Made by a program: the position numbers and the translations under genes | Shown here: positions 40,034-52,519 of the stretch, in pieces | Numbering within the stretch: the stretch's first letter is position 1 | How the letters are laid out: every line of letters begins with the position of its first letter | Notes under the pieces: generated by a model | The model's input: the letters and a program-made list of their open reading frames with translations, nothing else | The model's database searches: none | What the model was told of the DNA's origin: nothing | Assembly (NCBI GenBank): GCA_030066195.1 | Contig: JASJCB010000100.1 | Span: 1 to 64,000 of the forward strand | Direction: 5' to 3' | Length of the DNA: 64,000 nt | Origin: Acidobacteriota bacterium | Lineage (GTDB): Bacteria; Acidobacteriota; Holophagae; Acanthopleuribacterales; Acanthopleuribacteraceae

Positions 40034-43000
40034 TCAGTATTTACCGAATTCGTCGTCATCCAACGAAATGATTTGCGTGGGATCGACGCTGGAGCCGGGA
40101 TGGTCCATGATGTTACCGGAGGGTTCCGGCATACCCATATTCATGCCCATGCCCATGTTCATGGGTTGCGGCGCCGGAGCGGGTCGCGGCGCCGGGACCG
40201 AGCCCATACCGGGGGCGCCCAGGCCGCCGGCGGCCATACCGCCCATACCGTGCTGCTCCATAAAGCGTTGGAAGGCGGCCATCATTTCCGGGGGGAGCCC
40301 GCCCTGGCCGCCGACCTGCTGTTTCTCCTTGAGGGTGAACCGGGTCAGCATCTCCATCAGCTTGTTGGCCTGGCTGCTGAGCTCCTGGCTGGCCGCGGCG
40401 CTTTGCTCTGCGTTGGCCGTGTTTTGCTGAGTGACCTGGTCCATCTGGCCCAGCGCCTTGTTGGCCTGAGCGATGCCCTGCGCCTGCTCGTTACTGGCCG
40501 CGGCGATCTCCGCAACAAGATCGGTTACCTTGCCGATGCCCTGCACGATTTCGTTAAGCGCGTCGGCGGTTTTACCCGCGATGTTACTGCCCTGGTTCAC
40601 CTTCTGGATGGATTCCTCGATGAGCTGGGTGGTTTCCTTGGCGGCATTGGCGCTGCGCGCGGCCAGGTTGCGTACTTCCTCGGCCACTACGGCAAATCCC
40701 TTACCGTGTACACCGGCCCGGGCGGCTTCGACCGCCGCGTTCAAGGCCAGCAGGTTGGTTTGGAAGGCGATTTCGTCGATCACCTTGATGATCTTGGAAA
40801 TATTGGAGCTGGACTCGTCGATGGCCCGCATGCTGACCAACATCTGCTGCATTTGTTCGTTGCCGTTTTCGGCGCCCTTGCGGCACTGAACGGCCAGTTG
40901 ATTGGCCTGGGTCGCGTTCTCGGCGTTTTGTTTGGTTTGGGCGGCCATCTCGGTCATGGAAGCGGTGATTTCCTCCAAGGCGCTGGCCTGCTCGGTGGCG
41001 CCCTGTGACAGGGATTGCGACGCATCGGAGACCTGGCGGGCGCCGGTATTCACCTGGCTGGAAACCTGACGAACCTCGGACAGAATATCGTTCAGGCCGT
41101 CCAGGGTTTGATTGAGCGCTTCCTTCAAGACGGCGTGATCACCCTCGTAGGAGCCCGATACGTAGCTGGTCAGGTCGCCGTGCGACACGCCCTGCAAACT
41201 GGTCTTCAGTTCCGTGATGGGCGCCACGATGGCGTCGATAATGTTGTTGATACCCTGCATCATGGGTTGGTAGGCATCGGAAAGCGAGCTCAGATTGCCG
41301 CGTTTCTTTAAATCGCCGCCGGTGGCTGCCTGAATGACGAGGTTGACTTCGTCGCGGTAAACCGCTCTATCGTTATAGTCGATCCACTCGACCGCGTTAC
41401 CGATGACCTCGCCGTTTTCATCATAGAGCGCGGTAGCATTGAGGCCGAACTCCAGACCGGCCACGGTGATTTCCGCCTTGTGAGGCAGGTTACGGGGATC
41501 GCTGAGAAGGCTTCTTTGCTTAGCAGGGTCGATATGGAAATCGTCGATGCAGGCGCCGACCAGGCGGCTGGGATCGAAACCCGGGAAGGTTTCGGCCAGC
41601 TTGGCCCGGTAAGTGGTCAACAGGTTGACCACCGCGGGGTTGCAGTAGGTGATCCTCAAGTCCCTGTCGCACATCATCAGGTTGGTGGCGGCGTTCTCGA
41701 TCATCGATTCCAAGGCGGTTACGCGGGTAGCCTTGGCGCGTGCTTCCGTGACGTCGTCCCATTCCAGGTTGTTGCCGATATAGTTGCCGTCGCCGTCGCG
41801 CATGGCGGTGACGTTCAGCGAGAAGGTGAGCGGGCCCACGTGGATATCGGCCTGATAGGGCAGGTTGTTGGGGTCGCTGAGCAGGTTGCGTTGATGCGCG
41901 GGGTTTTTATGGAAGCGATCCACGCAAGTCCCCACCAGGTCTTCGAGATTGAAGCCGGGGAATTCGCGTTTGAAGGTTTCCAGGTGCCGGCCCATCAGTT
42001 CCCGTACCGCCGGGTTGATGGTGGTGATGATAAGATCGCGGTCCACGGTCATTTGTGCAGTGGCGGAACCCATGACTGCCGAAGTCAGGCGCGCTGCTTC
42101 GTCTTCCTTGGCGCGCTGCTCGGTGACCTGGTACCATTCCAAGGTGTTGCCGATGTAATTGCCGTCTTTATCGCGTAAAGCGTTTACATTCAGCTCAAAG
42201 ATCAGCGGGCCGATGTTGATGTCGGCCTTGTAGGGAAGATTGGCCGGATTGTCCAGGATACGGCGTTGCACCATGGGGTTCTTGTGGAAACGGTCCACGC
42301 AGGTGCCCACCAATTCGTCCGGGTTGAAACCGGGGAAGGCGATTTGGAAAGCCGAGAGGTTCTCGCGGATCATACGCAGGGAAGAGGGGTTGATATAGGT
42401 AATCCTCAGGTCGCGATCCACGGTCATCATGGAAACACCCGCGCCCTCGATAGAAGAGGACAAAAGGGCGGCCTCGTGTTCCCCGGCACGTTGCTCGGTT
42501 ACGTTTTGCCATTCCATTGTGGCACCGACGTAATCGCCCTTATCATTGAAGGAACCGGTTACGTTCAAGGCGAAAGTCAACTCCCCGACGCTTAAATCGG
42601 CCTTGTAGGGCAGATTGTTGGGTTCGGAGAGAATATGCCGCCAGTGCGAGGGGTTTTGATGGAGGATATCCACGCGGGTTCCGATCAGGTTGTCGGGTGA
42701 AAAACCGGGATAGGCGGTTTGGAAAGAGCGGATATGAGTGCGGAAGAGGTCGAAAGCAGCCGTGTTGGCATAGGTCACGATCAGGTCGTGATCTACCGTA
42801 ATGACGGCGGTGGAAGCGCCCTCCAAGGCCCACTTCAGGTTGTCGTCGGTACCGGACACCCGGCTCACCGAGACAACCGCGCCGGTGGGTTCGTCGTCCT
42901 CGTCCAATTGGGGAACCACCCTGAACAACAGTCCGGCTGTCCCGTCGTCCAATTCCAGTTCCACTTCCTGCTCGATGGTCTCGCCCTCACGCAGGGCCTC

Positions 43001-43657
43001 GTCCACCGGGGTGGCGCGGCGCCTGGAATAAAAAGCGCTCCAAGCCTTCTTTCCAACGATCTCATCGGAAGATACTCCAAGTAACGTTTCCGCGGCACGG
43101 TTCCACGCGGTAACCCGGGCGCTGCCGTCTACCGCAAATGCAGCCGTCGGCAGGTCCGCGAACAATCCGGCAAAGATGCCGTTGTCCTGTTGGTTCGTCA
43201 TTCCAGCCTCCTTAACTTCTTCTTCCTTGTTACCACTTTCTTTGGAACGCTCTTCATAACCTTCCAGGAAGGTGCGGGCCACAAAACCGAGCGCGTTGTT
43301 CCAGGCCGTTTCCAAGGCTTCATTCCATGTGCTGCCGGCGTATTCACGCATGGCGGCGACCAGGGTACGGGCAACGACATCGTAGTGAGCCGGCTCGACG
43401 CCGTAGTTCTGATGCCGTTTGCCCATGTTCTTCAATGCGGGGATCAGACGGTCGGGATTTTCCAGGTTTTCCACCAGGAATACCAGAGAGGCCAACAATT
43501 GTTTTTCTTGCAAGGACATGTCGACATTGACGAATATCGCCTTGACCTCGGGATGATCCCGAAACAGGGTTTCATAAAAGCTATGAATCAATTCGGCGCC
43601 GCGTGGGGCCAGCGCAGCAAAACTGTCGCGCAAGAGAGGAACATTGATATCGGCCAT
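40034..43657 (-). CDS. Soluble chemoreceptor: globin-PAS x5-MCP fusion
   Basis: A 1207-residue receptor without membrane segments. Residues 1-140 are a flavohaemoglobin-type globin: Tyr28 (B10) in SFYETLF, Gln53 (E7) and proximal His82 in [22 protein letters not shown] domain (about 163-270) precedes four closely similar PAS domains (about 276-390, 392-515, 522-640, 646-760), each with FPGF.P..LVG and a LPYKADI..G.L.F.LNV core. A HAMP-like linker (about 780-830) and an MCP domain follow, with the hairpin tip [21 protein letters not shown] near 956. The tail is Met/Gly/Pro-rich. Third gene after cheA-cheW. Confidence 0.9.
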
Positions 43658-43658
43658 C

Positions 43659-44174
43659 TCAGCTCTCCCCTTGTAGTTCCAATTCTCCGGCGGCCTGTAG
43701 GTGGCGCGCGTCCTTGAAAAGCAGCGATTCCGCGTTGAGCAGAATCTTCACCTCATTGCCAACCTTGCCCAGGCCCTGCATGAACTGATTGCCGTGGCCG
43801 CGACGAAGTTGGTTGGTCTCTTCAATCTGGTTTTTGGGGATCTCCAGGACCTCTTTGACCGTATCCACGATCAGGCCCACGATGGTTTCCTTGGCGTTGA
43901 TGACCACGATACAGGTACGCTCATCGTACTCGCGAGCCTCCATGGAAAAGCGCAGGCGGACATCCATAACGGGAATCACCTTGCCGCGTAAGTTGATGAC
44001 ACCCTTCACATAGTCGGGCATGTCCGGCACAGGCGTGATCTTCTGGATGCCGATGATCTCGGTAACGTACCTGATCTCCAGACCGTAGACTTCCTTACCC
44101 AGAATGAAGGTGAGGTATTTTCCTTCCTGAGTGTCCTCTTCTTGTAGTTCCAAATGACTCGAATCGTTCATCAA
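43659..44174 (-). CDS. cheW: Chemotaxis coupling protein CheW
   Basis: A 171-residue CheW that links receptors to Che[45 protein letters not shown] (in two adjacent motifs) and [24 protein letters not shown] are typical CheW signatures. The C-terminal helix region ([22 protein letters not shown]) includes the usual V-E-i..P segment replaced by a longer loop. It lies 12 bases after cheA, with CAGGAG upstream, and one base before the chemoreceptor gene. Confidence 0.95.
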
Positions 44175-44186
44175 CCAACTCCTGGC

Positions 44187-46544
44187 TTAAGTTGTGATTT
44201 CCGGAAGCTCCCAATCGAACTTCAAGAAGTTATCGACCAACCCCTGAATATCGAGAATCAAACTGATATCCCCGTTGCTGAGGATGGAGGTTCCCGAAAT
44301 GCCGCGTACATTGCCGAAGAAACCGCCCAAACCCTTGATCACGGTTTGGTACTGACCCAAAATCTCATCGGCAAACAGACAGAATTTCCGCGTATCGTGT
44401 TCGACCACGATGAGAATGCCCTCGGTAAGATCCTCGAAATCGGAGGCGGTGTTGAAGAGACTGTGCAACCGGATCACGGGCACCAATTCCTTGCGGATGC
44501 GCACCAACTCGCTGCCGTCGATGGTTTTGGAGATGGCGTCGTGGGTGGTCTTGATCGATTCGCGAATAGACAGCAGCGGCACCGTAAACAGCTGAACGCC
44601 GACCCGGACCAACATGCCCTCGATAATAGCCAGCGTGAGCGGAATGCGAATGGTGAAGTTAGTGCCCTTTCCCGGTTTACTTGAAATGTGAACGCGGCCC
44701 TTGATGGCGTCGATATTCTTCTTGACGACATCCATACCGACGCCGCGTCCCGAAATATCGGTGACCTGTTCAGCGGTGGAGAAGCCGGCCTCGAAGATGA
44801 GGTTGAAAATCTCGCTTTCGTTTTTGAACTCGTGATCGTGAGGGACCAGACCGCGTTCGATCGCTTTGTTCTTGATCTTCTGATGATCGATGCCCTTGCC
44901 GTCATCCTTGATCTCGATGACGACTTCACCCCCCTCGTGGAAGGCGCGCAGGTTGATGATGCCGGTGCGATCCTTGCCCGCGGCTTCGCGTTCCGCCGGC
45001 GACTCGATGCCGTGGTCGATGCCGTTGCGAATGATGTGCAACAGGGGATTGGCCAGGTTCTCGACAACGCTTTTGTCGATTTCGGTATCCTCGCCTTCCA
45101 TCACCAACTCTACCTGCTTGCCCTGCTTCTGCGACACATCACGCACCACGCGCACCATCTTGTGGAAGGTAGCCTCGATAGGCACCATGCGCAGGCTCAT
45201 GGATATGTCCTGCAATTCACGCGATATGCGGTTGAGTTGGAGAGCCGCCTTTTTGAAGTTGGGCAGATCGTAATCGTCCAAGTCGGGGTTGTGGGTGACG
45301 GTGTTCTCGGCAATGATCAGCTCGCCGACCAGGTTCATCAGGGCGTCCAGCTTGTAAAGGTCCACGCGAATGTTCTGAGCGGAAGACCGGCGCTTGACAT
45401 TGGATTCCGCGGTCGTGGCACGGCGTTCGTTTTGAACATTCAGGGCCTGGTCCAATTCTTCCCGTTGCACCGATCCCATATCGGCCAGGATCTCGCCGAT
45501 AGGTTGGGATTGCTTTTGAAGCGCGTGATCCAGTTCCTCGGGCTCGATGACGCCCATTTCCAAGAGGATTTCACCCACCAGTGTTGCATTTCCCTCGCCG
45601 CTCTTGGGTTTAAGGTGACCCACCTGGCCGTGTTTCACGTATTCGGTGAGCATGTTCAGGTAGGTATCGAAACCCTCTACCTTGCCGCCGCCCTCCGGTA
45701 ATTCATGCACCGCTGACTTGAGCGCATCCAGTACCTTCAACATGAGGGTAATGCCCTGGCGCTCTACCTTTTTCTTGCCGCTCTTGAAGTCTTCGAGAAT
45801 GGTTTCGAACTCGTGACCCAACTTTTCCAACTGGTTGAAGTTGAACAGGCCGGAGTTGCCTTTGAAAGTGTGAATACCCCTGAAGGCGTTGTCCAGTGAC
45901 TCCTTGTCGTTGAGGTTCTTTTCCAGGCCCAACAGGCTGGATTCCGCGGCTTCCAGATGTTCCTCGGCCTCCATGATGTAGGCGCCGACCATTTCATCGG
46001 TAATGGTGATCTGGAAGCTTTCGAATTCGTCGACCGGCTCGGCAAATGCCGGTTCGAGTTCAGGTTCCGGTTCGGGTTCAGGTTCCGGTTCGAGTTCCGG
46101 TTCAGGCTCCCTCTCGGGCTCCGGTTCGCTTTCTGCCGCCGTATCACCTTCAAGGGCGTCGGTCACTTTTTGGACAGCCGCCTCTGCATCTTCGATCTTA
46201 CCGGATTCGGACAATTGAGCTACGAACCCATAGAGACATTCAACGGCAACCTTCATCACACGGGCTTCGTGTTCTCCCGGCAAAACACTGTCCAGCAGGC
46301 TCTCGACGAAATCCTGCATCAAGACCGCAACTCGATAGACGGGATCCAGGCCCAGAAACTCCGCACTGCCCTTAATGGCTTGGAAGTTCTGGGCAATGCC
46401 GCTGATCAGGGAGCTGCCCGGATCCTGCCGGCGGCGGATGTGATCCTCAAGCGTTTCTTTTTGCTGGTGGATTTCGTCGAGAATATCTTTGCAATCTTGC
46501 GCAAACTCAGCAATGAATTCCGCGTTGTCGGAAAAACTATTCAT
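44187..46544 (-). CDS. cheA: Chemotaxis histidine kinase CheA
   Basis: A 785-residue CheA from the ATG at 46544 (a TTG lies upstream at 46580). The first Hpt-like domain (about 1-110) has lost its His (NFQAIKGSAEFLGL). A Glu/Pro linker repeats P-E-P-E. The second Hpt (about 185-290) has His225 in FRGIHTFKG. Residues about 315-375 hold two VGEILLEMGVIEPEELDHAL-like repeats that resemble MshEN/T2SE_N units. Dimerisation, ATPase (NPLLHIIRNGIDHGIES; DDGKGI; GRGVGMDVV) and CheW-like domains follow. No CheY, CheB or CheR nearby. Confidence 0.95.
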   Translation of the reverse strand: MNSFSDNAEFIAEFAQDCKDILDEIHQQKETLEDHIRRRQDPGSSLISGIAQNFQAIKGSAEFLGLDPVYRVAVLMQDFVESLLDSVLPGEHEARVMKVAVECLYGFVAQLSESGKIEDAEAAVQKVTDALEGDTAAESEPEPEREPEPELEPEPEPEPEPELEPAFAEPVDEFESFQITITDEMVGAYIMEAEEHLEAAESSLLGLEKNLNDKESLDNAFRGIHTFKGNSGLFNFNQLEKLGHEFETILEDFKSGKKKVERQGITLMLKVLDALKSAVHELPEGGGKVEGFDTYLNMLTEYVKHGQVGHLKPKSGEGNATLVGEILLEMGVIEPEELDHALQKQSQPIGEILADMGSVQREELDQALNVQNERRATTAESNVKRRSSAQNIRVDLYKLDALMNLVGELIIAENTVTHNPDLDDYDLPNFKKAALQLNRISRELQDISMSLRMVPIEATFHKMVRVVRDVSQKQGKQVELVMEGEDTEIDKSVVENLANPLLHIIRNGIDHGIESPAEREAAGKDRTGIINLRAFHEGGEVVIEIKDDGKGIDHQKIKNKAIERGLVPHDHEFKNESEIFNLIFEAGFSTAEQVTDISGRGVGMDVVKKNIDAIKGRVHISSKPGKGTNFTIRIPLTLAIIEGMLVRVGVQLFTVPLLSIRESIKTTHDAISKTIDGSELVRIRKELVPVIRLHSLFNTASDFEDLTEGILIVVEHDTRKFCLFADEILGQYQTVIKGLGGFFGNVRGISGTSILSNGDISLILDIQGLVDNFLKFDWELPEITT

Positions 46545-46647
46545 AGTGGTGGATTTCTCGTCGGAATGATGAGGCGTCAACAGTCACGGTTGCATTTTGG
46601 TTATCGGCATTGGTACCGTTCTCTTGAGGTACTGAGTCAAAAATATA

Positions 46648-47386: not shown

Positions 47387-48547
47387 ATGGCCATGCTTTC
47401 CGGGCTGTTCGGAAAAAAGAAAGAACTGAAAGGCGATGATATCCGCACATTGTTCGATACCATCACGGTCCTGCGTGAGCCGGTCATCGTCCAGACGAGT
47501 TCTTTTAAATACGTTTCCGATATTCTGGGTTACGATCATCAGGCTTTCTTCGTCAAAAATACGCTTAGCCGTGACGAGGTGCTGTACCAGATCCGCGGTA
47601 ATCAGTTAAAGGTGCATTTCCCCTATGAGCTGACCATGTACGGCGGTCAAAGCCGCCTGACAGGATTGGGCATGGTGGGCACCAACCATACTTTAAAGCT
47701 GCAAATACCACAGGCGCTTGTGCAAACGGAAAGTCGAGGCGCCTATCGAGTCTCGCGTTTCCCTGAAACGCCCTCGGTGACCTTTACCACCGATAACTTC
47801 GACATCATTAAAGCCCGCCTGGCCGATGTTTCCATGACGGGCGCCGGCCTGCGTTTGGATCCGCGATGGGCACGTGGGAACGAAAAACTGGCGGCGCGGC
47901 TACATCTGATTCTGGACATCAAGTTAACTGACGACCTACGTATTTCCACCACGGGCATGGTTCGTTATGTTCGCGGCGCCAAGATGGGTGTCCAATTCGA
48001 GGACCTGGGGAAGCGCACCAAAGACAAATTGTTCAAATTCATCGTGCAACAACGCCGCGAGGAACAGCGGGCCATGATTCAACTGCGGTCGCGCTTCGAA
48101 GAAAGCCAGACTATCGGGGACAGCGATCCGGCGGCACAACAGCCGGCCAAAGCATCGCCCACCGGAAAGCCGACGACCCTGCTGGTTTGCGATGACCAGC
48201 AACAAATCGACTTCCTGTCGTCCGCGCTTGGCCGCAAATTCGATCTCATCTTCGCGGAACCTTCTATCAGCGATATTCGCGCACAATTGGCCCTGAATCC
48301 CAACTTGTGCCTGATGCAACTGAAGAGTCAGGACCAGAATCAGGTGCGCACCATGCGTAAAGCGGGTACCCTGCTGCCGCCGGGTTGCGTACTGATGTTT
48401 TTCGGTCAAAACATGGACGAGGGTTTTGTCCAAAGATTCGAATCCCTGGATTACCCCGAGGGCATATTAGTAGACCTGACCAATGGGAAGAAATTACTGG
48501 TGTTCAAGCAAATCCAAAGCTATTACGACCAACGCGCACCAAGGTAG
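47387..48547 (+). CDS. PilZ-like protein with receiver-like C-terminus, paralogue of the 20097 gene
   Basis: A 386-residue protein with the same plan as the product at 20097: a YcgR-N-like beta domain (about 15-115), a PilZ-like domain with RGAYRVSRF followed by LADVSMTGAGL (RxxxR and DxSxxG, about 115-230), a short linker with Gln/Ala, and a receiver-like domain (TTLLVCDDQQQIDFL; NLCLMQLKSQD; VLMFFGQN). Here DD follows the first strand, but the phosphoacceptor strand has no Asp (LCLMQ). Likely a c-di-GMP-binding cytoplasmic effector with unknown output. Confidence 0.72.
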   Translation: MAMLSGLFGKKKELKGDDIRTLFDTITVLREPVIVQTSSFKYVSDILGYDHQAFFVKNTLSRDEVLYQIRGNQLKVHFPYELTMYGGQSRLTGLGMVGTNHTLKLQIPQALVQTESRGAYRVSRFPETPSVTFTTDNFDIIKARLADVSMTGAGLRLDPRWARGNEKLAARLHLILDIKLTDDLRISTTGMVRYVRGAKMGVQFEDLGKRTKDKLFKFIVQQRREEQRAMIQLRSRFEESQTIGDSDPAAQQPAKASPTGKPTTLLVCDDQQQIDFLSSALGRKFDLIFAEPSISDIRAQLALNPNLCLMQLKSQDQNQVRTMRKAGTLLPPGCVLMFFGQNMDEGFVQRFESLDYPEGILVDLTNGKKLLVFKQIQSYYDQRAPR

Positions 48548-48568: not shown

Positions 48569-49324
48569 TTAGCCCTGGTCAGGATCGATTCCGGCTGCTT
48601 TTAGAATAGCCCGGAGCCGTTCTTTTTCGGCACGCTCTTGGAGCTTTGCCTCGGCTTCCGTGGGCAGGAGTTTGCCGTTACCGTCGTAGAAACGCAACCA
48701 GTTGCCGATTTGATCTTGATAGCGACCCTGCCAGAGACGCAGACCTAGTTGAATCTCCTCCAGCCATAATCCCTTTTTTGGAACGACCAATTGCACATAA
48801 CCGTCGGCCTCCCAACGGTATGCCCTGATCTCACCCTCGTGGTGATCGAAGCAGACATAATAGGGTACTTGGAGGATCTTTTCATAGACCTGCCATTTGG
48901 TGGGAACGGCCTCTCGGGACTCCGTCTTTCCCAAATCTTCTTTTTCGGTGCCTTTGGATAGGATTTCCAGAACCAGATAGGGGCGCACCTTTTCCTGCCA
49001 GATCAAATAACTCCTGCGCCTCATCTTGTTGAAAACAGGCGAGGTTCCCAAGGCCAGGAACCAGTCGGGGCGCTTATGCCAATTGGGGTTGTTCTTATCG
49101 AAATGAATATTGAGTTCCGCTGCAATCAGGAAATCGATCAAGCCCCTGGATTGGAATTCCATGAGCAGGCACTCTTTAAGCAGATTGCTTTGTGTGGGAT
49201 GAACGATATCAGGCAAAAGGCTGTCCTCCGGGTACTCCGAAGGCAGATCATCCATTGTGGGTAGGCCCGCTTCGAAATCATCTTCGAAGTATCTCAGGTT
49301 TTCCAGCAGTGCTTCCATTGTCAT
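48569..49324 (-). CDS. Uma2 family endonuclease-like protein
   Basis: From the ATG at 49324, with GGAGG seven bases upstream, 251 residues. The PD-(D/E)XK-type Uma2 core is visible: KRPDWFLALGTSP, RRSYLIWQEKVRPYLVLEIL (split motif with Glu), KEDLGKT, YEKILQVPYYVCFD and IRAYRWEADGYVQL. The C-terminus is a charged coiled coil (EAEAKLQERAEKERLRAILKAAG) common in this family. It lies 47 bases after the unknown gene of the ZorAB-like cluster on the same strand, so it may be part of that operon or a separate multicopy Uma2 gene. Confidence 0.85.
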   Translation of the reverse strand: MTMEALLENLRYFEDDFEAGLPTMDDLPSEYPEDSLLPDIVHPTQSNLLKECLLMEFQSRGLIDFLIAAELNIHFDKNNPNWHKRPDWFLALGTSPVFNKMRRRSYLIWQEKVRPYLVLEILSKGTEKEDLGKTESREAVPTKWQVYEKILQVPYYVCFDHHEGEIRAYRWEADGYVQLVVPKKGLWLEEIQLGLRLWQGRYQDQIGNWLRFYDGNGKLLPTEAEAKLQERAEKERLRAILKAAGIDPDQG

Positions 49325-49371
49325 GGTTAAACCTCCCGGAACATGCTCGACATCATCATTGTAGCAGAAAT

Positions 49372-50409
49372 TCAAATCTGGCGGCATTCGGCCAGGATTC
49401 GGTTAAGCTCACGTTCCCACAAGTCCATGTCATCGACTTCTTCGATCAGACGGTCGGGCTTGCCGAAGGTGTAGACCCGTATCCGGTCTTTGGAGTGAAA
49501 TACGCGGAAAGGCCTGATGAAGGCAATCACCTGCTCTTCCTTGTATCGCCAGTCCTGACAGAGGTAAAGCCAGTCGGTCCAAAAGGCGTGGATGTCGGAT
49601 TGGGAAACCAGGCCCGCCATACGTCCACTGAAGAGGCGGTTGCGAAAGCCCCAAAGTTGGCCCGAGTCGAATACGTTGTAGAAGGGTCGCAGCACCGGGT
49701 CAGGCGGACCTTTTTTGGCGTAGATTTTTTCCAAAAGTGACGGTTTCCAGAACTCCGCCGGGTAGAAGAAAAGGAAGTTGTGTACGCGGGTGTCCTGGCC
49801 TTTTTCAAGAGCTTGGGTGATCAGGATCGCGGCTATCTCGGACGGAATGCGTTTGACCAGTTCGCCGCCGCGTGAAAAGACATAGTCCATCAACAGCCAG
49901 GTAAGCGGCAGATTGGTGGTGTATTCATTGAAGATGTACGTTGGATCGGTTCCCTTTTCCAGGCTTGCCGCCGCATGATCCAACGGTGTCGATGCCGCTC
50001 CGTTCGCGAAGTAGCGACAGATCCAGTTCATTCGTTTTACCGTAATTCGTTCCACGCCCAGGGTCGGCCAGATTGCCGCGATCCACTCCAATTGTGTCCT
50101 GTTGGGATTGCAGTAGAAGAAACGCAGCAGCGGCCCGGCGGCTCTACTGTCTTTACGTGTGGCCAGGATGAGGAAAATGGCTGACAGTACGCGGTTGGAG
50201 GGGGCTTTGTCGTAGTAGTGCGACAGGAGATCTATTTCCTTGTCCATCAACTGCTCACTCCAGCCGATCACCTCGCCCGGATCCATTTGGTCCAACACCT
50301 GGAACAAAGCAGCCAGGCCGGAAGGAGTTCGTGTTTCATCGATGGGAAACAAGGCGGAAATACGCTCGATTGCGTCACGGGTTTTCAGGGGCTCGAATTG
50401 AAGGGCCAT
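49372..50409 (-). CDS. Unrecognised protein encoded after the ZorA/ZorB-like pair
   Basis: A 345-residue, probably cytoplasmic and mostly helical protein: no signal peptide or membrane helix, many Trp, Phe and Leu. Recognisable stretches include LFQVLDQMDPGEVIGWSEQL, RTQLEWIAAIWPTLGVERI, NLPLTWLLMDYVFSRGGEL, HNFLFFYPAEFWKPSLLEK, and the ending DDMDLWERELNRIL. It starts two bases after the ZorB-like stop, so it is co-translated with it. By position it corresponds to ZorC or ZorE, but I see no EH-signature, helicase or HNH motif. Function unknown. Confidence 0.75.
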   Translation of the reverse strand: MALQFEPLKTRDAIERISALFPIDETRTPSGLAALFQVLDQMDPGEVIGWSEQLMDKEIDLLSHYYDKAPSNRVLSAIFLILATRKDSRAAGPLLRFFYCNPNRTQLEWIAAIWPTLGVERITVKRMNWICRYFANGAASTPLDHAAASLEKGTDPTYIFNEYTTNLPLTWLLMDYVFSRGGELVKRIPSEIAAILITQALEKGQDTRVHNFLFFYPAEFWKPSLLEKIYAKKGPPDPVLRPFYNVFDSGQLWGFRNRLFSGRMAGLVSQSDIHAFWTDWLYLCQDWRYKEEQVIAFIRPFRVFHSKDRIRVYTFGKPDRLIEEVDDMDLWERELNRILAECRQI

Positions 50410-50411
50410 GA

Positions 50412-51116
50412 TTACTCCGTAACCAGATCCTTGTAAATATCCTGGAACAGCTCGCTTTCTTTCAGGCGCACGTGGATTTCAATGCGGCGCGAAAGCTCCT
50501 TGTCTTCAATACCGTCTTTATCGTAGATCAGGTGTGCAAAGGAACGTCCGCCCGCCACAACGATTTGTTGCAGTCGCACCCTTTGCGACGGGTCCACCCG
50601 GTCCAGCATTTCCTGCATAACGGTTAGCGCGCGTTGCTGGGACAGTTGCAGGTTGAACAGGTAGGTGCCGTTGGAGTTGGTGTGGCCCTCGATCTCGATC
50701 TGCCGAATCACATTGCGGAACTCATTGTCCAGCACCACTTTGATATAGGCGTCAAAGACACGGTGCAAACGGACGCGACCCTCGTCCTGCAGATTGGCCT
50801 CGCCTTCCCCGAACAGGATGCCGGAACCAATCCGCAGTACGCCGGAATCAGGGTCCAGTGCAACTTCTTCACCTTTCATTTCCTCGGCCAGGGTGCCTAC
50901 TAAACGCTTCTTCAGTTCGTGGAATGATTTCAGGCGCGATTCCTGGGACTCCAAGACCTCTTCTTTCTTGCGGGTAAAATCGGCATAGTGAAACAATGCC
51001 ACCACCAGGAGCAGGATGAAAACAAGCAGCATGCCCGCCATCAGGTCACTGTAAGATGCCCAGAAATTGGGTTGTTCGTCGTCTTCAATAGGCGACCTGG
51101 CTCTGCCCTGAATCAT
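50412..51116 (-). CDS. zorB: ZorB-like (MotB/OmpA-type) motor stator subunit
   Basis: A 234-residue protein with a cytoplasmic N-tail, one membrane helix at about 18-42 (WASYSDLMAGMLLVFILLLV) carrying Asp24 at the proton-pathway position of MotB/ZorB, a periplasmic helix (about 45-75) and an OmpA-like peptidoglycan-binding domain (about 95-225: SGILFGEGEANL, IEIEGHTNSNGTYLFNLQLSQQRA in two motifs). Size and layout match ZorB. The start overlaps the zorA-like stop by four bases. Pairs with the upstream MotA/ZorA-like gene. Confidence 0.8.
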   Translation of the reverse strand: MIQGRARSPIEDDEQPNFWASYSDLMAGMLLVFILLLVVALFHYADFTRKKEEVLESQESRLKSFHELKKRLVGTLAEEMKGEEVALDPDSGVLRIGSGILFGEGEANLQDEGRVRLHRVFDAYIKVVLDNEFRNVIRQIEIEGHTNSNGTYLFNLQLSQQRALTVMQEMLDRVDPSQRVRLQQIVVAGGRSFAHLIYDKDGIEDKELSRRIEIHVRLKESELFQDIYKDLVTE

Positions 51117-52519
51117 TTACCCTTCCCCAAGAAACCGCTCTTACGGCGTTCGGCCGGTTGTTGTCCCTGTTTTTGGATCAGAGCCCCATAGGCATTCAAA
51201 GTGTCCTGAAACTCTTTGAGCGCGGTGGAAAAATGGGTCAGCCCTTGCGCAAGCAGACCGTCGAATTCTTCATGAACTTTTCCAAGGGCGCTTTCCATTT
51301 CCCCCTGATAGGCGGCCAGGGTTTTTTGGAGGTTGTCCTGCATGGCCTGGAGGTGCGCCCGATAGGTATCCCAATGTTTCTCCAGGCGTTGGACGTGGTC
51401 ATTGACCTGGCGATGATTCCTGATGATGTCGGAGGTAGCCATGCGGGCGCCTTCCATCAACTTGCGTACCTCGGCGGCGGTTTCCTGAATGGACTTCAAG
51501 GTTTCGCCCTGGTTACTATGCGCCTGGCCGAAATCGTTGAGAACCTTGCGCGTATGAGCGATCAGCTTGGCTTGCTGTTGCGGATTGCCGGGTTCGCCGG
51601 ACAAGGCCGTTTCGCTTTCCAGCAGTTTGTTGATTGCTTTGCCCATCTTTTCCTGAGTCTCCGAGTTACGACCAAGAGCGCTGCCGATACTTGCCATTTC
51701 GCTACGAATGGCATTGAGGACCAGGATCATGCGTTTGTCGTGCTCAGATTCGCTCAGTTTGGTGACCAGGGTATCGATGCCGACCTCTCGCATGGCCTTC
51801 AGCGTGGCCTTTCCGATGGTTTCTTCCATTCCGGCCAGAGCGTCGGAGGACTCCGCTTGATAATCCAGGAATTGGTAATTCATTTCATCCGGAATCAACA
51901 GGAATTGCTTTTCGTGCAACACCTCAGAGAGCAAAGCAAAGGCCTCCCCGAATTCGGCATCTACTCCCTTTTGAAACCAGGTCCACCAAAGACCGGTGCC
52001 GATACCCGCGATCGAGGTTAGAAAAGCCAGGCTCATGCCGCCCAATAATCGTTTGACGCCGACGGTCATTTCGTCGGCGTTAGTTGGGTCCAACCCAAAG
52101 ACGCCGATAGCAAGGCCCAGAAAAGTAAACAGAATACCGGTTCCCATCAACAAACCGGGCATGGCCTCGATACGACGATGTGCCTTGTGGTTCTTCAGCC
52201 GACGATTGATATCGCAAAGAAAATCCAGGTCGACAACCCAGCCCAGGCGCCCGTGAAGCCGCAGGGGTTCCTTGTCGAATAAGCGCCAAAGCGGCTTGGA
52301 GACACCGCGTACCGTGCTGTCTTTATGGTCGACCCAACCGTTCAGAACCTCTTTGAAAGAATTGCCTTCCGCGCATGAGCGAAGCATTTCTGCCAGCTTG
52401 CTTATTTGTTGGGAAGTGGCGGATAGGGAACCGAAGAGCTTCCGGCCTTGGAAAACGCCGAAACCCACGATGCCCAAGCTTAAAATAAAGGAACTGATGG
52501 TAAGCAGCACGATCGGCAA
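51113..52519 (-). CDS. zorA: ZorA-like (MotA/ExbB-type) motor subunit with long cytoplasmic tail
   Basis: Up to 468 residues from TTG 52519; a GTG at 52510 has GAGG nine bases upstream and may be the real start. A membrane helix at about 5-24 is followed by a cytoplasmic segment, then two helices at about 120-144 (PGLLMGTGILFTFLGLAIGV) and 160-185 (LGGMSLAFLTSIAGIGTGLW), the MotA/TolQ/ExbB motif pair. The last 270 residues form a long coiled coil, the ZorA-type tail, shorter than in type I ZorA. First gene of a four-gene strand-matched cluster. Confidence 0.8.
   Translation of the reverse strand: MPIVLLTISSFILSLGIVGFGVFQGRKLFGSLSATSQQISKLAEMLRSCAEGNSFKEVLNGWVDHKDSTVRGVSKPLWRLFDKEPLRLHGRLGWVVDLDFLCDINRRLKNHKAHRRIEAMPGLLMGTGILFTFLGLAIGVFGLDPTNADEMTVGVKRLLGGMSLAFLTSIAGIGTGLWWTWFQKGVDAEFGEAFALLSEVLHEKQFLLIPDEMNYQFLDYQAESSDALAGMEETIGKATLKAMREVGIDTLVTKLSESEHDKRMILVLNAIRSEMASIGSALGRNSETQEKMGKAINKLLESETALSGEPGNPQQQAKLIAHTRKVLNDFGQAHSNQGETLKSIQETAAEVRKLMEGARMATSDIIRNHRQVNDHVQRLEKHWDTYRAHLQAMQDNLQKTLAAYQGEMESALGKVHEEFDGLLAQGLTHFSTALKEFQDTLNAYGALIQKQGQQPAERRKSGFLGKGK

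What the first reader, a model, noticed from the sequence alone, without database searches (positions are those of the whole stretch)
48569..52519. ZorA/ZorB-like motor operon with non-canonical partners
A MotA/ExbB-type protein with a long coiled-coil tail (51113-52519) and a MotB/OmpA-type protein with a membrane Asp (50412-51116) overlap by four bases. They are followed by an unrecognised 345-residue protein and a Uma2-type nuclease on the same strand. ZorAB are the shared core of Zorya anti-phage systems, where the partners are ZorC/D or ZorE. Neither motif set is visible here, so this could be an undescribed Zorya variant. Inference rests on architecture; a generic ExbB/OmpA-type stator is the alternative.
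Basis: partly seen in the sequence, partly recalled or inferred. Interest (0 to 1): 0.82.

Follow-up and report, generated by a model that had tools for sequence, protein, structure and literature searches.

The report
Zorya-type motor with new third gene
A marine-type acidobacterium carries a three-gene operon that pairs the ion-driven membrane motor of the Zorya anti-phage system with a previously undescribed helical protein in place of every known Zorya effector, a small family-restricted variant whose function has not been tested.

Summary
The operon is real, and its first two genes are Zorya-type motor genes, not a generic stator. ZorB matches PADLOC ZorB at E=4e-60 and ZorA at 6e-17; the best solved structures for both are ZorA/ZorB; the ion-path Asp (D24), the matching ZorA Thr/Ser and the peptidoglycan-binding motif are conserved. 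The 345-residue third protein (X) follows zorB in all four family genomes that carry it: the window, Sulfidibacter corallicola, Acanthopleuribacter pedis and a Holophagae MAG. No convincing copy was found in 396 sampled acidobacterial genomes, plasmids, phages or viral contigs. X has no Pfam, PADLOC, NCBIfam or PHROG match and is not a recognisable ZorC: a divergent ZorC model finds the ZorC structure 8r68 at rank 1, X does not. X is predicted to be a helical-repeat protein with a small C-terminal beta part. Uma2 is not part of the system: it has its own ribosome-binding site, paralogues at unrelated places in the genome, and is missing from the three related loci, where the operon lies among housekeeping genes, not in a defence island. 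Best reading: a family-restricted Zorya variant (zorA-zorB-X), probably anti-phage, with X as tail-recruited adaptor or effector. Defence is untested.

The parts
51113..52510 (-). zorA-like gene (465 aa from GTG 52510; ORF opens at TTG 52519). N-terminal TM helix, TM pair at about 120-180, short cytoplasmic tail of about 265 residues
   Evidence: PADLOC ZorA1 E=6.3e-17; PDB hits 8vvn, 8qyy, 8qyk, 8qyd; start choice and hydropathy
50412..51116 (-). zorB-like gene (234 aa): one TM helix with ion-path Asp24, then an OmpA-like peptidoglycan-binding domain
   Evidence: PADLOC ZorB1 PDLC00609 E=4.4e-60; PDB 8qyd_F, 8vvn_B, 8vvi_A; Pfam OmpA E=1.4e-7
49372..50409 (-). gene X (345 aa): third gene of the operon; predicted helical-repeat N-part, five-stranded C-terminal beta part and a final helix; no TM helix
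   Evidence: homologues directly after zorB in three other genomes; no family match; AlphaFold2 model pLDDT 75, pTM 0.64
48569..49324 (-). Uma2-family gene, judged a neighbour and not part of the system
   Evidence: Pfam Uma2 E=5e-15; 7 other Uma2 genes in the genome, three alike (68, 60 and 35%) in unrelated contexts; absent from related loci

Best explanation
This is a three-gene operon, zorA-zorB-X, encoding a Zorya-type ZorA5ZorB2 membrane motor with a short tail and a new cytoplasmic partner. Shown here: membership of ZorA and ZorB in the Zorya motor family, conservation of the ion-path and peptidoglycan-binding residues, and linkage to X in one bacterial family. Inferred from the characterised systems: ZorB senses damage to or indentation of the peptidoglycan, ions flow past ZorB Asp24, and the ZorA pentamer with its coiled-coil tail turns or rearranges. 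Inferred and weaker: X, in the gene position of ZorC or ZorE, docks on the ZorA tail and acts as, or recruits in trans, the effector that stops phage infection. Rough component probabilities: Zorya-type motor 0.97; zorA-zorB-X as the unit 0.9; anti-phage role about 0.6; X as tail-recruited adaptor or effector about 0.4-0.5.
For: Profile and structure-sequence matches. ZorB Asp24 aligns with the Asp of 8vvn and 8qyd ZorB, and mutating that Asp (D24) abolishes type I and II defence (PMC11890865). ZorA Thr129 and Ser166 (GTG numbering) align with EcZorA T147 and S184 and are invariant in the clade. The ZorB motif EGHTNSxGTYLxNLxLSQxRA...SRRIEI is invariant or nearly so. ZorA aligns to type I ZorA 8vvn from the N-terminal TM region on (29-298), and better to an EcZorA chain of 495 residues (8qyk, E=5.6e-19) than to the 729-residue chain (2.9e-13), as expected of a short-tailed type I-like ZorA. 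X is third gene in 4 of 4 loci with 2-50 nt spacing and is followed by a gap in the three relatives.
Against: No nuclease or helicase signature in X or elsewhere in the operon, whereas types I and II carry ZorD or ZorE. No defence island around it: neighbours in the window are an ABC transporter, chemotaxis, D-Tyr-tRNA deacylase and PilZ genes. In three relatives it sits between NAD synthase and a Ser/Thr kinase-TPR-RecQ run in conserved order, a stable place that is unusual for a defence system. Only four sequences of X are known.
Confidence: 0.5

Rival explanations
1. A domesticated ZorAB motor with a non-defence role in the cell envelope of this family (for example sensing wall stress or driving an envelope process), with X as a cytoplasmic regulator.
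For: Conserved order with housekeeping genes in three genomes; roughly the same chromosomal region in all four (metK 24, 116, 126 and 180 kb away); restricted to one family with no sign of plasmid or phage carriage; no defence island.
Against: Not found in three other genomes of the family that keep nadE, so not essential. In the window genome the operon is not beside the nadE-pilZ pair. X (26-30%) and ZorA (35-39%) diverge fast while ZorB keeps 48-58% and metK 73-76%, which fits an arms-race partner.
Confidence: 0.2
2. A type I Zorya whose X is an extremely diverged ZorC and whose ZorD has been lost or acts from elsewhere.
For: X stands in the ZorC position. The predicted element order (GPPDP or GDPR loop, long helix, FWxRW or FWLRY helix, several strands, last helix with a conserved Trp) looks alike by eye in X and ZorC. 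The best hhalign stretch is co-linear at the C-terminus.
Against: The hhalign score is no better than column shuffles (29/150 and 11/150 reach it). No EH_Signature match for any X. The X model does not list ZorC 8r68 among its best 50 PDB hits, while a divergent ZorC model of lower confidence retrieves 8r68 at rank 1, E=2.6e-6.
Confidence: 0.12
3. A four-gene Zorya variant in which the Uma2 protein is the nuclease effector.
For: Same strand, 47 nt after X; Uma2 is described in Pfam as a putative restriction endonuclease family.
Against: Missing from the three related loci; 68%, 60% and 35% paralogues at unrelated places in the same genome; own ribosome-binding site.
Confidence: 0.06
4. A generic ExbB/MotA-type stator not related to Zorya.
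For: Pfam sees only OmpA and a weak MotB_plug in ZorB and no MotA_ExbB hit in ZorA.
Against: In NCBIfam ZorB1 scores 91 bits against 49 for the best non-Zorya model and 33 for the best named flagellar MotB; PADLOC ZorB reaches 201 bits.
Confidence: 0.02

Closest known systems
Zorya type I (ZorA-ZorB-ZorC-ZorD)
   Same: ZorA with N-terminal TM extension; ZorB best matched by PADLOC ZorB1 models; third gene directly after zorB
   Different: No ZorC (EH_Signature) and no ZorD helicase; ZorA 465 aa instead of 729 in Klebsiella, so a much shorter tail; ZorB forms its own branch in a small tree
Zorya type II (ZorA-ZorB-ZorE)
   Same: Three-gene layout with a single partner after zorB; ZorB nearest by tree path to type II examples
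   Different: X has no HNH or other nuclease domain; ZorA has the longer type I-like N-terminal part
Zorya type III (ZorA-ZorB-ZorF-ZorG)
   Same: ZorAB core; partners of unknown biochemical activity
   Different: X matches neither DUF3348 nor DUF2894; the ZorB3 model scores lowest (E=1.3e-15 against 4.4e-60 for ZorB1)
Flagellar MotAB and other MotB/OmpA-type stators
   Same: Motor core and peptidoglycan-binding domain
   Different: Much weaker profile scores, and a long coiled-coil ZorA tail

Membership tests
Zorya (ZorAB core) | ZorA of the MotA/ExbB superfamily with a long cytoplasmic coiled-coil tail | tested here: met
   ZorA models E=6e-17 and weaker, PDB ZorA chains as best hits, tail of about 265 residues
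Zorya (ZorAB core) | ZorB with TM Asp and OmpA-like peptidoglycan-binding domain | tested here: met
   PDLC00609 E=4.4e-60; D24 aligned with 8vvn and 8qyd; motif conserved in 4 sequences
Zorya (ZorAB core) | Protects against phage | not testable with these tools
   needs phage challenge
Zorya type I | ZorC with EH_Signature domain | tested here: not met
   no Pfam or PADLOC hit for any X; hhalign at shuffle level; fold search does not list 8r68 in its best 50 while the control does
Zorya type I | ZorD helicase in the operon | tested here: not met
   no such gene next to the operon in the window or L014; the RecQ in the relatives is a standard DEAD-RQC-HRDC protein separated by two genes
Zorya type II | ZorE with HNH nuclease domain | tested here: not met
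   no HNH match in X or Uma2
Zorya type III | ZorF (DUF3348) and ZorG (DUF2894) | tested here: not met
   no match in X or neighbours
Uma2 as Zorya partner | conserved beside zorAB across genomes | tested here: not met
   absent from L014-L016; dispersed paralogues in the own genome

The most novel reading that the evidence does not exclude
The Acanthopleuribacter family has kept a Zorya-type ZorAB motor at a stable chromosomal place and coupled it to a new helical protein for an envelope or stress function other than phage defence, that is, a phage-defence motor turned to a cell-biology role (or its ancestral state).
Probability: 0.17. Interest if true: 0.75.

Novelty: new variant of a known kind. 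Interest (0 to 1): 0.5.

Why it matters
All described Zorya systems couple the same motor to a different effector (ZorC/D, ZorE, ZorF/G). A three-gene version with one unknown partner that does not look like a nuclease would show how small the output module can be and would give a compact test case for how a turning ZorA tail is read by a cytoplasmic protein. Its stable housekeeping neighbourhood also raises the testable question whether ZorAB motors always serve defence.

Tried and rejected
Uma2 as effector: rejected (dispersed paralogues, absent from relatives). X as ZorC: not supported. The weak X-profile hit in G311 (E=0.005) is judged a chance match: no zorAB is near it. Window PilZ gene as proof of shared synteny: rejected, it is only 23% identical, and the true pilZ-nadE orthologues lie on contig C279 without zorAB-X. 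Plasmid, phage and viral-contig searches for X found nothing, nor did viral contigs for the ZorB alignment. Fold searches of X in PDB and BFVD gave no significant match.

Full report
What is there. On the - strand the window carries zorA-like 51113-52510, zorB-like 50412-51116, an unrecognised gene X 49372-50409 and a Uma2 gene 48569-49324. The window lies in an 11.6 Mb, 407-contig genome. Its relatives with the operon are Sulfidibacter corallicola M133, Acanthopleuribacter pedis KCTC 12899 and a Holophagae MAG, so it is another genus of that acidobacterial family (g1 of f1). The zorA start is most likely GTG 52510 (GAGG 9 nt upstream; two of three relatives have their Met at the same column), and Uma2 most likely starts at ATG 49324 behind GGGAGGT.

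The motor is Zorya-type. PADLOC gives ZorB1 PDLC00609 E=4.4e-60 (201 bits) and ZorA1 PDLC00601 E=6.3e-17; all four family ZorA proteins match 15 ZorA models. NCBIfam scores, though below the curated cut-offs, rank Zorya ZorB1 and ZorB2 above flagellar and other OmpA models. The best solved structures are the ZorAB complexes 8qyd, 8qyk, 8qyy, 8vvn and 8vvi. ZorB Asp24 (YSDLMAGML) aligns with the Asp shown to be needed for type I and II defence (PMC11890865). ZorA Thr129 and Ser166 align with EcZorA Thr147 and Ser184 and are invariant in the four sequences; that those two E. coli residues line the ion path is from my own knowledge of Hu et al. 2025, which the library does not hold, while PMC11890865 describes the ring of ZorA serines and threonines around the ZorB Asp. 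The OmpA-like motif with His, Leu and Arg is invariant.

Tail. ZorA is 465 aa against 729 for the Klebsiella type I protein, so its tail is about 265 residues. A profile of the four proteins aligns better to an EcZorA chain of 495 residues (E=5.6e-19) than to the full 729-residue chain (2.9e-13), with the membrane core and the far end of the tail both matched. Read as inference, the clade has the type I layout with the middle of the tail missing. Conservation is high in the TM pair (57-70% invariant), lowest at residues 301-330 of the TTG-numbered protein (3%) and recovers modestly towards the tail end (20-23%).

The third gene. X homologues (30, 28 and 26% identity) follow zorB at 2-50 nt in four of seven genomes of the family. 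The profile finds no other convincing copy in 396 acidobacterial genomes, and single or profile searches find none in plasmids, phages or viral contigs. X matches no Pfam, PADLOC, NCBIfam or PHROG family. The AlphaFold2 model (pLDDT 75, pTM 0.64, only four sequences) shows helical repeats to about residue 235, two further helices, five strands at 284-325 and a last helix. It has no significant structural match in PDB or BFVD.

Is X a ZorC? Canonical type I loci with EH_Signature ZorC exist in other acidobacteria and served as control. By eye, the order of elements at the C-terminal end is alike in the two models. Three tests did not support homology: no EH_Signature hit for any X, an hhalign score within the range of shuffled columns, and a fold search in which a control ZorC model of lower confidence finds ZorC 8r68 at rank 1 (E=2.6e-6) while X does not list it among its best 50. 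X therefore should not be called ZorC; a very remote relation is not excluded.

Uma2 is a neighbour. The genome has seven other Uma2 genes. Three are paralogues (68, 60 and 35%) beside unrelated genes, and none of the three related loci has one next to X.

Context and inheritance. In S. corallicola, A. pedis and the MAG the operon lies in the conserved order MCP - PilZ - NAD synthase - zorA - zorB - X - Ser/Thr kinase - TPR - RecQ. The RecQ and kinase give generic PADLOC hits; they are separated from the operon by a gap and absent beside it in the window. In the window genome the pilZ-nadE pair is on another contig without the operon, yet metK lies within 24-180 kb of zorAB-X in all four genomes, which favours vertical descent with local rearrangement. 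Three smaller genomes of the family have nadE but no detected X. A small ZorB tree puts the four together, outside the sampled type I and type II groups, with modest support (81/87). No defence island surrounds the locus.

Judgement. This is a Zorya-type motor with a new single partner, found in one bacterial family: a new variant of a known kind. The anti-phage role is the most likely reading by kinship of the motor, but neither defence nor the action of X has been shown, and the housekeeping setting leaves room for another role.

Noticed in passing
L069 342-2979 (Psychrobacter plasmid NZ_MN657036.1): A 7.5 kb mobilizable plasmid carries a compact zorA-like (363 aa), zorB and HNH endonuclease operon, a very small type II-like Zorya on a tiny plasmid.
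   Followed up: partly
L060 6660-10242 (G044, same class): A seemingly broken type I Zorya: zorA and zorB intact but zorC truncated after the GDPR motif, with an IS-like transposase gene about 2 kb further on.
   Followed up: partly
L070 1290-5594 (Paracoccus yeei plasmid NZ_CP024423.1): An OmpA-family protein similar to ZorB ends a four-gene run of hypothetical proteins; possibly another uncharacterised stator operon.
   Followed up: no
40034-46580: Chemotaxis gene run: CheA-type kinase (Pfam), a CheW-like protein and a large MCP that by reading looks like a globin-like domain, several PAS repeats and an MCP signalling domain.
   Followed up: no
47387-48547: PilZ protein with extra N- and C-terminal regions (the C-terminal one looks receiver-like by eye); a distant paralogue (23%) of the PilZ protein near zorAB in the relatives.
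   Followed up: partly
L010, L012, L013 (own genome): Uma2-family genes close to the window copy are scattered beside unrelated genes, suggesting an expanding or mobile gene family in this genome.
   Followed up: partly
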